From positions 25,052,202 through 25,116,201 of the forward strand of contig NC_091219.1 in NCBI RefSeq assembly GCF_040958095.1: a stretch of 64,000 nt of DNA, in the 5' to 3' direction. This DNA is from Procambarus clarkii. Lineage: Eukaryota; Arthropoda; Malacostraca; Decapoda; Cambaridae. Below are positions 45,958 through 62,929 of the stretch, in pieces (positions within the stretch are counted from its first letter, which is position 1; each line of letters opens with the position of its first letter). The notes beneath the pieces were generated by a model. It saw only the letters and a program-made list of their open reading frames with translations. It ran no database searches and was not told the DNA's origin. The translations under genes were made by a program, and so were the position numbers.

Positions 45958-48347
45958 GATTCTGTTCTTTAACCTGTGAAGACTTGTGGTGAAGATGCGT
46001 CCATTCCCTTGGAGGTTCATCTTCTTGATGCTGGCGGTTGTGGCTTGTAAGTTATAAGGTGTTGTTGCTTAGTTGGCTTGGCTGGTTATGTAACGTGTGT
46101 TTGTCCTGCGTCGTTACTGCTTGTAGCTTGTAATGTGTGATAGTGTTGTACAGTCGTAGTGTTGTTTCTTTGGAGTTTGTTTAGGTGTACAGAACTGTTT
46201 GTGACTTGTAATCTTGACTAAGTTGCTTCTGTTGTTTGTGTTTTGCTTGTCATCGTGTTCTTGCTTTCTCCTGTGTCCTGCACAGCCCTCAATTGTGTAC
46301 CGGTTCTGCCCCCCCCCAAGTCTGTACCGGTCCTGCCCCCACCCCAAGTCTGTACCGGCCCCCCCTTAAGTCTGTCCCCCTAAGTTTGTATCTGTCCTGC
46401 CCCCCCAAAAGTCTGATGCACCAAGCCCCTAACTGCTGAACTGTGTCATTACAGGCGTGAGTGAGGGTGCACAGTGCCCCAGGGTGTGTCCCCAGCACAT
46501 CTCCCCTGTGTGTGGCTCCAACCACATCACCTACGCCAATGACTGCAAGCTGGATCAAGCAGCCTGTCATGACCATTTCTTGAGGAAGATGCACAATGGC
46601 CATTGCAGTGAGTTATTTTTTTAATTATTGTTGTTCCATAGTCCTTAGTTTAAAACATTCAGTAACTCATTGTTTTTGTGATTTGAAATTGTTTTATTAG
46701 TTTTAAAATAAGCAAAGGGGTGATAGCTCACTTTGTACTCACCTAGTTATATTCACCTAGTTGTGCTTGCGGGGGCTGAGCTGTGCTCTTTCGGCCCGCC
46801 TCTCAGCTATCAATCTATCAACTGTTTCTAACTATTTTTTTTTGGTTCACACTTGCACACACTCCCAGGAAGCAGCCCGTAACAGCTGTCTAACTCCCAG
46901 GTACCCATTTACTGCTAGGTAACAGGCGCATTAGAGTGAAAGAGACTCTGCACATTGTTTCTCGCCGGTGCCGGGAATCGAACCCGGGCCACAGGATTAC
47001 GTGTCTAGCATGCTAGCCACACAGCCACAAGGAACCCACTTTGTGCAGGCAAAGCGAGGATATTAGTTGTATAAATTATTTTTTTTTGTATTTGTTGAAG
47101 AGTTTCCGACCGTCCAAGTGGTTGGGCACCATTCCTTCCCTCCCCCGTCCCGTCCCAAATCCTTATCCTGACCCCTTCCCAGTGCTATATAGTTGTAATG
47201 ACTTGGCGCTTTCCCCCTGATAGTTCCCTTCCCTTCCCTTGTTGAAGAGTTTGTAGTCACGGCGTTGATTAGATAAAGTTTCCCCTCTGATTAAAGTATC
47301 TTAATATGTAAAGCTTTTATACGGAATATTCTTGGGTTTGGTGTTGGGCATTTGGTCTCTAAACCTGTGGAGGGTTATTAAGCCCTTAACTACTCTACTA
47401 ACCAGGCAGTATGTATACTGTTGTCCTGGATATACCTCAGGACTAACGTAATCTCTTAATGTATATATATATATACACTTAGAAATACACCTCTCGATGT
47501 ATTTATTCGTGTCAGAGAGTCAATAGCGAATCGTAAAAATAAGTTAAGAGCACAAATAAAATAAATATCAGAGCTTAATATATATATATATGCGGAAAAT
47601 CCACAGAGAAATATGAAATGAGGTGAACGTTTCGGCTTCGTTAAAGCCTTTGTCAACGAAGCCGAAACGTTCACCTCATTTCATATTTCTCTGTGGATTT
47701 TCCGCATAAAATGATCAGTGTTTTGTGATCGTCAATTGCATATATATATATATATATATATATATATATATATATATATATATATATATATATATATATA
47801 TATATATATATATATATATATATATATATATATATAATATTAACACGTATTAGATCTATACAATAAATAATATTTTTTTTTTGAGTGGTATTGATGATAA
47901 GGGAGATACTTCGCATCATCCTACCAACTCTAAACAATCGGCAACGTAATTTTTTTTTCTTTTATTGTAACTAGCATATGTCAACAATTAAGAGAATTAG
48001 CAAATATATAAATCAAATAAATTGACCAAAGGTTACCCTCCTGTTAAGGAGTGGTAGAAATAGCCTAAGCTACTCTATCACTTCGAGATGTATTTTTTTG
48101 TCTCCATAAACGTACTTGAACTTAAACCCTTATCTGAACCGTCAGACCTTGAGATTGTTTACATAAAAAAGACATGTTCTCTTTGGCAGAGGAGAAGCCT
48201 AACTGCGACAAGGGTTGTTTATCCTATGGGACCTACGTGTGCGGGTCGGACAAGAAGACCTACAGTAACTCCTGTGTACTGAGCTTCGAGGCCTGCATGA
48301 ACCCTAATCTCAATCTAAGGGTCGCCTATAAGGGCCGATGTCGTTAG
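45958..48347 (+). CDS. KazA: secreted two-domain Kazal-type serine protease inhibitor
   Basis: Coding exons 45995-46046, 46455-46607 and 48190-48347, joined in phase 1, give 120 residues; 45958-45994 is the 5'UTR after acceptor TTTTCCATCCTAG. Exon 1 is a signal peptide (MRPFPWRFIFLMLAVVA). Exon 2 holds Kazal domain 1: C-x3-C-x7-C-x10-C-x6-C-x12-C with PVCGSNHITY. Exon 3 holds domain 2: C-x3-C-x7-C-x10-C-x6-C-x14-C with YVCGSDKKTY. Known Kazal folds present a loop after Cys II; the predicted P1 residues are Gln (domain 1) and Ser (domain 2). Exon 2 is 153 nt, and exon 3 would also be 153 nt if the weak donor at 48343 (GTTAGG) is used; otherwise it ends CRCR-like at the TAG at 48345. Either way only the last residue changes. 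The target protease is unknown. Confidence 0.88.
47590..47707. repeat. Perfect hairpin, 53-bp arms, 12-nt loop
   Basis: 47590-47642 and 47655-47707 are exact reverse complements by eye (ATGCGGAAAATCCACAGAGA ... inverse), with loop AAAGCCTTTGTC. A short TA run precedes it and a 95-bp TA array follows 33 bp later. There is no coding capacity. It is either a MITE-like foldback element or a recent palindromic duplication. Confidence 0.9.
47741..47836. repeat. (TA)n microsatellite
   Basis: About 48 TA units next to the hairpin in KazA intron 2. Confidence 0.98.
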
Positions 48348-48657
48348 GTACTGTATATATGTGTGTGTGTTTATGTGCTTCTTCCCAGGTACTTGCCAAC
48401 ATTTCCGGCCAATTCTTGGCTATTTTGTTTTTTTCTATTTCAAAATTTTAGGCTTTTCCTCGTTATTTTTTTTTCTAATTTAATAAATGTATCTTCGTGT
48501 CTATAATCCTATTCACTATTTTTTGTTCTAATTATAAACTATGCAATTTAAATCAGATTTGTTTGTGATTTAACTTAAGTTAATACCTTCGAAGCCTCCT
48601 TCAGGTGACCTAAAACGTAAATTAGTTGACGTAGTGCTCTTTCCTTTGAATTTTCAG

Positions 48658-48890
48658 ATTAGATTCCAGCTTGCAACTCAGACGCGAGGAACGAAGCAAC
48701 GTCTTGAACAAACCCAGGAAGGATTCATCTTATCTCTAAGACTCTCACACAACTTGGCAATGGCGTCTCACCCTTTGTTTCATCACCAATTCTGACGGCA
48801 GTCGTGCTGCGCAGTGTGGGGGTTTTGGTCACTGTATTTGTAACTTGAGGATTCTCCATATAAATATACTAAATAAAAGTTGAAAATTAT
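48658..48890 (+). other. KazA 3'UTR exon and poly(A) signal
   Basis: Acceptor TTGAATTTTCAG at 48657 is followed by ATTAGATTCCAGCTTGCAAC, nearly the same as the terminal exon of KazB at 52678. AATAAA at 48872-48877. If joined to exon 3 at the weak donor 48343, the junction reads C|AT TAG (His, stop). If exon 3 is skipped, exon 2 joins it as A|AT TAG (Asn, stop), giving a one-domain form like KazB. Confidence 0.75.
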
Positions 48891-48939
48891 GCAATTTTCT
48901 TTGTAGTTTGTCTAACAATTTGCTACATGGCTGATCTCA

Positions 48940-49235
48940 TGAGTCTCTGAAATCTGAACAACGAGAAAAGGCACAGGGAACGAGACCTCGCTAATCTGGA
49001 AGAGAGAAGGGTAAAAGGAAACATAATCACCATATACAAGATTCTTAGAGGCCTTAACAAGGACAAAATGGATACTGTGGGGACTTGTCAAACAGGCTGG
49101 AGTTAGTCTCATCCAGGTGAAGGAAAACATAACGAGGGGAACCAGATATGTGTAAGGAAATACTAATTTTCAGTGAGAATGGTAAACCTGGAAGAATCAA
49201 CTTTTCCCAGAGGTGGTGCAAACTGCCCTCATACA
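48940..49235 (+). mobile_element. LINE 3' fragment behind KazA
   Basis: Reads RDLANLEERRVKGNIITIYK then ILRGLNKDKMD, the post-RT block of the CR1/L2-like LINE. A related fragment sits at the same place behind KazB, so it was probably part of the duplicated unit. Confidence 0.65.
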
Positions 49236-49239
49236 CAGC

Positions 49240-61686: not shown

Positions 61687-61972
61687 ATGGGTTCCCTGAC
61701 CTTCACCTCCGCCCTCCTCCTGCTGCTGGTGGCTTGTGGCCCTCTAGTGTCTGCTAAACGTAAGAGTTTGTGTCTAATTTTTTCCCCATTGATGTATCTA
61801 ATTGCTGTATTTTTTACTACATGTTTGCTATACTATATTCTTGTTAGTCTCATTGCGTCCCATCATCAAAAGCAGTGGAGACATCATGTGCTCTGCTCTC
61901 TGCGTCAACCACTACGGACCTGTCTGCGGCTCCGACCATAAGACCTATGCAAAGTCTTGCCTGTTGCGTTAA
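61687..61972 (+). CDS. KazD: Kazal-like protein truncated after Cys IV
   Basis: Exon 1, 61687-61759, encodes MGSLTFTSALLLLLVACGP... with a probable signal cleavage after VSA, donor AAAC|GTAAGA (phase 1). Exon 2 begins at 61848 after ATTCTTGTTAG, and in phase gives IMCSALCVNHYGPVCGSDHK then TYAKSCLLR and a TAA at 61970: C-x3-C-x7-C-x10-C, the first four Kazal cysteines, then stop before Cys V and VI. Predicted product 65 residues. A domain cut here should not close its usual fold, so this may be a pseudogene; a cryptic donor at GC|GTTAAG (61968) leading to an unseen exon is a weaker alternative. The 5' leader (61650-61686) is like that of KazC. Confidence 0.7.
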
Positions 61973-61974
61973 GA

Positions 61975-62610
61975 TGCATACTTTAACTGACCTATTTCGG
62001 TAGGTCGTAGAGTAGGTCGTAGAGTAGGGTTATTGATCGTACAGTAGCCTATGCAGTGAATAATTTTATACTCACATAGCAAACAATCTTTGCAAAGCAA
62101 AGTTTTGCGTTATTTGCTTTGTTGTTTTTAAACTCTCTCGCCACTTTTCATTCTAAGATATTCATTCCTGACCCTCTAGCATCTCCCTCTGCTATCTGGT
62201 GGTGTAATTTCTTCAGTTATCCCCTTGTCCTTGTACTGAATTGCTTTGCTTCCTTATATCCTTTAATTAAATGGGTTCCTCTGTTGCGTTTAATTGTTCT
62301 CCTTTTGCAACTCCTCCGAGTTGTATTTACAATGGAATTCTTATTAGAAATTTGGTCTGCATAGATTTGGTCTGCTACTTTCACCAGATACTTAAAAGTC
62401 AATAAATAATGATTTCTCATCCTCGTTTGACTTGCCTTATGTCCGACGCGTTCAGAGTGAACATCAGGTCAAGTTTTGCTGGTGTGTCATTCCACCTCTC
62501 GCTCTTGTGGGTCCCATGACATGTTTACTTGACAGAAAATGTATCCTGATCGTATGTGTATTTATTTTCATTATTCTATTTTGTGTATTCTTAAGGAAGA
62601 CTAACCCAAA
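61975..62610. other. No coding sequence seen downstream of KazD
   Basis: AT-rich. I looked for a plus-strand exon restoring the missing Kazal C-terminus and for a terminal exon like those of KazA-C and found none convincing; TTCAG|AGTGAACATC near 62456 is a weak acceptor. Confidence 0.5.
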
Positions 62611-62614
62611 AAAT

Positions 62615-62929
62615 GAATAGTATGTATTAATTGCATCTTTATTAAGCAGGGTTATATGTAGAATCATTACATTACACTAATAGAACAAAACACTAGTCAG
62701 ACCATAACACTGTTCACTACAGAGGGAGACGCCTCGACCCTGTGATGGTAGTCACTGGATCATGGTCGTCTTCGAAGTCGTCTTGAGTCGATTACGTAAA
62801 GCTTCGTGTAAACCAGAGATGACAAGTCGTCAACAGGAAGACAGTTTATGATTCTATTGCTATAGGAGATTCTTAGGAAAGATTTATCCTAGTATCCACG
62901 TCATCTTTAATTTTGTGGCTGAAGTTATT
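62615..62929 (-). other. Terminal 3'UTR exon of a convergent Kazal paralog (body outside window)
   Basis: Read on the minus strand, acceptor CCTTCGAATTTTCAG at 62930 is followed by an exon whose right part matches the KazC 3'UTR: GTCTTCCTGTTGAcGAcTTG, TCATCTCTGGTTTACACGAA, GTGAACAGTGTTATGGTCTG and AATAAAGATGCAA, with AATAAA at 62643-62638. KazC's Kazal exon lies 1.4 kb upstream of its terminal exon; the equivalent here would fall beyond 64000. Confidence 0.65.

What the first reader, a model, noticed from the sequence alone, without database searches (positions are those of the whole stretch)
45958..62929. Tandem cluster of Kazal inhibitor genes with a different predicted contact residue in every domain
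Four plus-strand genes and one convergent terminal exon share a signal-peptide exon, a phase-1 intron and a Kazal exon. The residues at the predicted P1 position (second after Cys II) are Gln, Ser, Leu, Pro and Asn in the five visible domains, while the PVCGS core is kept. Such a pattern is what diversifying inhibitor families in arthropod immunity or secretions show. The family and P1 rule are established; the diversification claim is inference from five domains.
Basis: partly seen in the sequence, partly recalled or inferred. Interest (0 to 1): 0.8.

Follow-up and report, generated by a model that had tools for sequence, protein, structure and literature searches.

The report
Tandem Kazal protease-inhibitor gene cluster
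A run of small animal genes for secreted protease inhibitors, three domains intact, one lacking a disulfide pair and one broken, of a kind already known from crayfish and shrimp blood cells.

Summary
The cluster is real: four plus-strand genes sharing a 5'UTR/signal module (TGTGAAGACTTGTG occurs four times in the window) carry five Kazal exons, all above the Pfam cut-offs. P1 residues Gln, Ser, Leu, Pro, Asn are as reported. Corrections: gene 1 has two domains (K1, K2); K2 reads YVCGS, not PVCGS; K4 lacks Cys I and V, partners of one disulfide, and has P1 Pro; K5 stops before Cys V, so gene 4 is probably dead; the minus-strand "terminal exon" (62929-62621) has no Kazal domain and matches gene 3's 3'UTR exon. 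Predicted contact columns vary more than others (permutation p 0.006; 0.037 for K1-K3), but five different P1 letters alone is near coin-toss (0.44). For the one pair alignable at length (genes 1, 2), Kazal-exon omega is 0.19-0.39 and divergence is patchy: intron-1 head and 3'UTR 7-9%, intron-2 head 43%, Kazal edges near saturation. This suggests old duplicates with later-homogenised ends rather than recent positive selection, though the 26-codon core alone decides neither way. Hypervariable hemocyte Kazal inhibitors are already described in decapods. An ordinary new member; no relatives or RNA could be tested.

The parts
45995..46046 (+). gene 1 signal-peptide exon, donor GTAAGT at 46047, phase 1
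   Evidence: shared 5'UTR motif at 45975
46455..46607 (+). gene 1 Kazal exon K1, six Cys, P1 Gln, phase 1 at both ends
   Evidence: Pfam Kazal_2 E 3.3e-11; splice sites
48190..48347 (+). gene 1 second Kazal exon K2, six Cys, P1 Ser, YVCGS; own TAG at 48345 (another possible donor lies at 48343)
   Evidence: Pfam Kazal_2 E 2.7e-9; in frame after K1
48658..48877 (+). gene 1 terminal 3'UTR exon, AATAAA at 48872; 3' end assumed at this signal
   Evidence: first part identical to gene 2 at 165 of 181 aligned sites
50765..50816 (+). gene 2 signal-peptide exon
52198..52350 (+). gene 2 Kazal exon K3, six Cys, P1 Leu; stop codon lies at the start of the terminal exon
   Evidence: Pfam Kazal_2 E 2.2e-10
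52678..52922 (+). gene 2 terminal exon (G|AG TAG over the junction); AATAGA at 52899 and ATTAAA at 52917, no AATAAA up to 53060
56635..56683 (+). gene 3 signal-peptide exon
57134..57295 (+). gene 3 Kazal exon K4, P1 Pro, Trp for Cys I and Phe for Cys V, own TAG at 57292
   Evidence: Pfam Kazal_1 E 1.8e-8; AF2 model mean pLDDT 85.7, the best of five, the others 53.7-60.1; best PDB match infestin 1
58720..59037 (+). gene 3 terminal 3'UTR exon, AATAAA at 58833, 58997 and 59032; 3' end assumed
61687..61759 (+). gene 4 signal-peptide exon, longer, donor GTAAGA at 61760
61848..61972 (+). gene 4 truncated Kazal exon K5, P1 Asn, TAA at 61970 before Cys V; probable pseudogene
   Evidence: Pfam Kazal_1 E 8.9e-8
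62621..62929 (-). convergent 3'UTR exon with conserved acceptor side and AATAAA at 62643 (another at 62566); no Kazal domain; of an unseen minus-strand gene, or of gene 4 after a local inversion
   Evidence: 74% to gene 3 UTR exon over 258 columns; acceptor side 79% over 38

Best explanation
A tandem cluster of secreted non-classical Kazal serine-protease inhibitors, most likely of a decapod crustacean and of the blood-cell (hemocyte) Kazal type. One two-domain gene (P1 Gln, Ser) and one one-domain gene (P1 Leu) look intact; one gene encodes a two-disulfide domain with P1 Pro; one is a truncated remnant. Shown: exon anatomy, family, loss of one cysteine pair, truncation, patchy divergence. Inferred: the products block proteases by the canonical loop, each with its own target range; genes 1 and 2 are old duplicates whose promoter/signal/intron-1 head and 3' exon were later homogenised (gene conversion or unequal exchange), so control is shared while the Kazal exons stay different.
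For: 5 of 5 exons pass Pfam cut-offs. Identical 14-base 5'UTR motif in 4 of 4 genes; 0 of 100 shuffles reach 4 matches. Phase-1 exons with usable splice sites. Three residues between Cys I and II and six between IV and V in K1-K3, as in non-classical group I, which includes a crayfish inhibitor (PMC3082530 passages). Between genes 1 and 2, 6 of 89 intron-1-head, 21 of 163 upstream, 4 of 27 5'UTR and 16 of 181 3'UTR sites differ, against 53 of 123 in the intron-2 head (Fisher p 1e-8 to 4e-12); at 26 Kazal-exon codons with the same residue, 9 differ silently (p 0.0004 against intron-1 head plus 3'UTR); tail silent differences 9 of 10.7 sites.
Against: No expression, inhibition or relative could be tested; species not given. 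The intron-2 alignment runs through poly-T and may hold non-homologous bases. The old age of the Kazal exon rests on its edges: in the 26-codon core silent divergence (4 of 17.2) is not clearly above the flanks (47 of 460; p 0.10), and dS at flank level is only weakly disfavoured there (p 0.02 at 0.10, 0.056 at 0.145). A transposon fragment downstream of both genes differs at 23 of 106 sites, between the two levels. Only one gene pair carries the argument.
Confidence: 0.7

Rival explanations
1. Recent tandem duplicates whose Kazal exons are driven apart by positive selection on the contact loop.
For: Contact columns are more variable than the rest (mean 3.80 against 2.08 distinct residues, permutation p 0.006; K1-K4 0.031; K1-K3 0.037). 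In the 26-codon core of K1/K3 replacement divergence (11 of 60.8) is near silent divergence (4 of 17.2) and above the flanks (47 of 460), p 0.08. With dS held at flank levels omega would be 3.0-4.5 for the exon and 1.2-1.8 for the core. The signal exon has omega about 1 (0.98; 1.6, not different from 1).
Against: For the whole exon dS at flank levels is rejected (LRT 33-42) and omega is below 1 (p 0.001); for the core the free estimate is 0.30; intron 2 next to it is strongly diverged without coding.
Confidence: 0.18
2. The whole cluster is decaying: a pseudogene array with chance intact frames.
For: K5 truncated; K4 has lost two Cys; no AATAAA in gene 2's terminal exon where gene 1 has one.
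Against: Genes 1, 2 and 3 keep frames and splice sites; omega below 1 for K1/K3. The two lost Cys are partners of one bridge (by chance 3 of 15 pairs), and two-disulfide Kazals work: GmSPI-2, and CrSPI-1 domain 1 bound to subtilisin (passages); that it is the I-V bridge they lack is my reading of the spacing.
Confidence: 0.1
3. About gene 4 only: it and the minus-strand UTR exon are one gene split by a local inversion with a breakpoint inside the Kazal exon.
For: Gene 4's 5' module is closest to gene 3 (23 of 99 differ; other pairs 0.33-0.37), and the minus-strand exon is closest to gene 3's UTR.
Against: A loose pattern for the missing tail, run on both strands of 61960-64000, matched only one place, minus strand near 62094-62041 (three overlapping matches), whose surroundings are not Kazal-like and which lies on the wrong side of the UTR exon. 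A separate minus-strand gene beyond the window fits as well.
Confidence: 0.35

Closest known systems
Decapod hemocyte Kazal inhibitors (Pacifastacus leniusculus KPIs, Procambarus clarkii hcPcSPI)
   Same: Kazal inhibitors of crustacean blood cells with high sequence polymorphism; at least 26 domains reported in one crayfish (PMC8234337 passages citing Cerenius et al. 2010); one- and two-domain forms are named there
Non-classical group I Kazal inhibitors CrSPI-1 and GmSPI-2
   Same: Cys I and V shifted; CrSPI-1 domain 1 and GmSPI-2 hold only two disulfides, as K4 would (passages)
   Different: K4 has P1 Pro and Trp/Phe in place of the two cysteines; activity unknown
Infestin 1/4 and rhodniin (triatomine Kazal inhibitors)
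   Same: Ranks 1, 2 and 4 of the Foldseek list for the K4 model, E 4.4e-4, 5.4e-4, 9.3e-4; ranks 3 and 5 are ovomucoid domains
   Different: Three disulfides (recalled); not tested beyond fold
Avian ovomucoid third domains
   Same: Contact residues are the variable ones (recalled)
   Different: Classical Cys spacing; a series of orthologues rather than a paralogue cluster (recalled)

Membership tests
Kazal domain (PF00050/PF07648) | profile match above gathering score | tested here: met
   5 of 5 domains
Kazal domain (PF00050/PF07648) | six cysteines, bridges I-V, II-IV, III-VI | tested here: inconclusive
   K1, K2, K3 have six; K4 has four (I and V missing); K5 lacks V and VI by truncation. 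Pairing not measured
Non-classical group I Kazal | Cys I and V shifted towards the C-terminus relative to OMTKY3 | tested here: met
   K1-K3: I-II spacing 3, IV-V spacing 6, against 7 and 2 in OMTKY3 (recalled); definition from PMC3082530 passages. Not applicable to K4 and K5
Decapod hemocyte KPI | signal peptide plus one or two Kazal domains | tested here: met
   genes 1, 2, 3; signal peptides judged by eye, no predictor was run
Decapod hemocyte KPI | expression in hemocytes | not testable with these tools
   no RNA data
Decapod hemocyte KPI | closest relatives are crayfish/shrimp KPIs | not testable with these tools
   the open collections are of prokaryotes, viruses, phages and plasmids and were not searched; the own-genome search did not complete
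Positively selected inhibitor family | omega above 1 in the inhibitory domain | tested here: not met
   whole Kazal exon 0.39 and 0.19 with 1 rejected; core alone 0.30 with 1 not rejected; one paralogue pair, no site models

The most novel reading that the evidence does not exclude
The cluster keeps a common control shell (promoter, signal exon, terminal exon) homogenised by repeated gene conversion while the Kazal exons between are spared and stay divergent, so that one regulatory programme expresses a panel of different inhibitory loops, including a two-disulfide P1-Pro domain with a non-canonical role.
Probability: 0.25. Interest if true: 0.5.

Novelty: new member of a known kind. Interest (0 to 1): 0.27.

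Why it matters
It shows how a known hypervariable inhibitor family may be laid out in a genome, and gives a testable account (conversion of the ends, older Kazal exons) beside simple positive selection. It also offers a natural two-disulfide Kazal domain with P1 Pro to assay. It would not surprise a specialist in crustacean immunity.

Tried and rejected
The own-genome Kazal search was asked six times and answered each time only with a busy message, so the size of the family in this genome is unknown. The second structure job, for K3, gave a poor model (pLDDT 62.3); K4's best model had 85.7 but its other four 53.7-60.1. The two therefore say nothing on the relative stability of four- and six-cysteine domains.

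Literature: eight searches. In those joining Kazal with positive selection and crustacean (12 of 12 listed), gene cluster, tandem duplication or inhibitory loop (14 of 14), and gene conversion, inhibitor genes or exon (12 of 36 listed), no title or abstract opening described a decapod Kazal gene cluster. The library is open-access only; Cerenius et al. 2010 was seen only as a citation. Papers were seen as passages (PMC8234337, PMC9902875, PMC13031303, PMC4169406, PMC3082530), none in full.

Two slips were mended: one search read gene 4 one base out of frame (right), and one search set K4 one codon off in its pairwise table (right; its column table was typed in register and stands). Considered and dropped: that the convergent exon holds a Kazal domain; that five distinct P1 letters are evidence in themselves (0.44).
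Full report
OBSERVATION. The plus strand between 45958 and 61972 carries four short genes. Each begins with a 5'UTR holding TGTGAAGACTTGTG (45975, 50745, 56618, 61667). A search of both strands allowing two mismatches found these four, all exact; shuffles average 0.84 and 0 of 100 reach 4. Signal exons end in phase 1 and are followed by Kazal exons starting at 46455, 48190, 52198, 57134 and 61848. All five domains pass the Pfam gathering scores of Kazal_1 and Kazal_2. 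A tblastn of the five domains against the window found no further Kazal exon; the best other hit had E 0.077.

ANATOMY. Gene 1 has two Kazal exons in one reading frame, K1 (P1 Gln) and K2 (P1 Ser). Gene 2 has one, K3 (P1 Leu), with its stop codon at the start of the terminal exon. Gene 3 has K4 (P1 Pro) with its own stop. Gene 4 has K5 (P1 Asn), which stops soon after Cys IV as CLLR-stop. K4 has Trp for Cys I and Phe for Cys V; these are partners in the classical Kazal fold, so one whole bridge is gone. The core is PVCGS in four of five and YVCGS in K2. The convergent minus-strand exon at 62929-62621 is 74% identical to the terminal exon of gene 3 over 258 columns, keeps its acceptor side (79% over 38 bases) and an AATAAA, and contains no Kazal domain. 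It belongs either to a minus-strand gene beyond the window or to gene 4 after an inversion. A loose pattern for the lost tail of K5, run on both strands of 61960-64000, matched one place only (minus, near 62094-62041); its surroundings do not look like Kazal.

IS THE P1 PATTERN MORE THAN CHANCE? Five different letters in five draws have a probability of about 0.44 under the pooled composition. P1 is one of six columns with five different residues among the 27 compared. As a group, however, the ten contact columns (set recalled from ovomucoid work: P6, P4, P2, P1, P1', P2', P3', P14', P15', P18') hold more distinct residues than the twelve other non-Cys columns: 3.80 against 2.08, permutation p 0.006; with K1-K4 p 0.031; with the three six-Cys domains p 0.037.

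SELECTION OR SOMETHING ELSE? Only genes 1 and 2 align along most of their length. Over the 51 codons of the Kazal exon, Nei-Gojobori gives dN 0.38, dS 0.95, omega 0.39; a codon model gives omega 0.19 and rejects 1 (p 0.001), with dS poorly bounded. Over the whole coding sequence four methods give 0.43-0.58; the signal exon alone is near 1. The ends are far more alike: 6 of 89 sites differ in the intron-1 head, 21 of 163 upstream, 4 of 27 in the 5'UTR, 16 of 181 in the 3'UTR exon, while 53 of 123 differ in the intron-2 head; 10 of 42 differ just before the 3' exon. For the whole exon a dS equal to the flank level is rejected (LRT 33 to 42).

The exon itself is uneven. A 26-codon core is less diverged (silent 4 of 17.2, replacement 11 of 60.8) than the 18-codon tail (silent 9 of 10.7, replacement 16 of 43.3); this split was made after seeing the alignment. 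In the core alone omega is 0.30 with 1 not rejected (p 0.11), and dS at flank level is disfavoured only at p 0.02 (0.10) or 0.056 (0.145); the 25 edge codons carry the signal. Similarity of the upstream and intron-1 stretches does not extend to gene 3 beyond 45934-46064, which argues against constraint as the reason for the similar ends. The simplest reading is old duplicates with ends homogenised later. It is inference from one pair, and adaptive change at contact sites is not excluded.

HOW IT LIKELY WORKS. From established knowledge of the family, a Kazal domain presents the loop around P1 to a serine protease as a substrate-like inhibitor. K3 with Leu would suit chymotrypsin-, elastase- or subtilisin-like enzymes; K1 and K2 have less telling residues. 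K4 with Pro at P1 is a poor canonical candidate; yet the PDB list shows a Pro-18 ovomucoid variant in complex with SGPB (rank 10), so binding is not ruled out. Loss of one bridge is compatible with function: GmSPI-2 and CrSPI-1 domain 1 have two disulfides, GmSPI-2 is active on subtilisin and proteinase K, and both CrSPI-1 domains sit in subtilisin's pocket (passages of PMC4169406, and PMC3082530). The K4 model is Kazal-like, best matching infestin 1, but four of its five models had pLDDT of 60.1 or less, and the K3 model was poor.

KNOWN KIND. [quoted passage not shown] PMC9902875 (passages) uses one as a hemocyte marker in Procambarus clarkii. The host of the window is not given; decapod is my inference from the gene type and from dispersed repeats as I recall them, and was not tested. 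The finding is a new member of a known kind.

Noticed in passing
60276-60609 (-): A fragment matching eukaryotic large-subunit rRNA (RF02543, 90.8 bits, 60459-60609, the only Rfam match in the window) abuts, within two bases, a dispersed repeat (60276-60460) of which two other copies (16720-16904, 10740-10934) end at the same point; perhaps an rRNA-repeat chimera.
   Followed up: partly
25502-26116 and 27163-27768 (+): Two very similar ORFs (by eye); the first has a CENP-B-type DNA-binding domain, probably starts of pogo/Tigger-like transposases.
   Followed up: partly
30551-31159, 34495-35388, 53149-53592 (+): Likely retrotransposon remnants: an RNase H match below the gathering score at 30551; no Pfam hit for the other two, judged from their translations.
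   Followed up: partly
61042-61601 and 56431-56565: Tandem arrays just upstream of genes 4 and 3: a 62-base unit, 9.1 copies, and an 18-base unit, 7.5 copies.
   Followed up: no
48958-49068 and 53061-53166 (+): A similar transposon-like fragment lies downstream of genes 1 and 2 (23 of 106 sites differ), perhaps part of the duplicated unit.
   Followed up: partly
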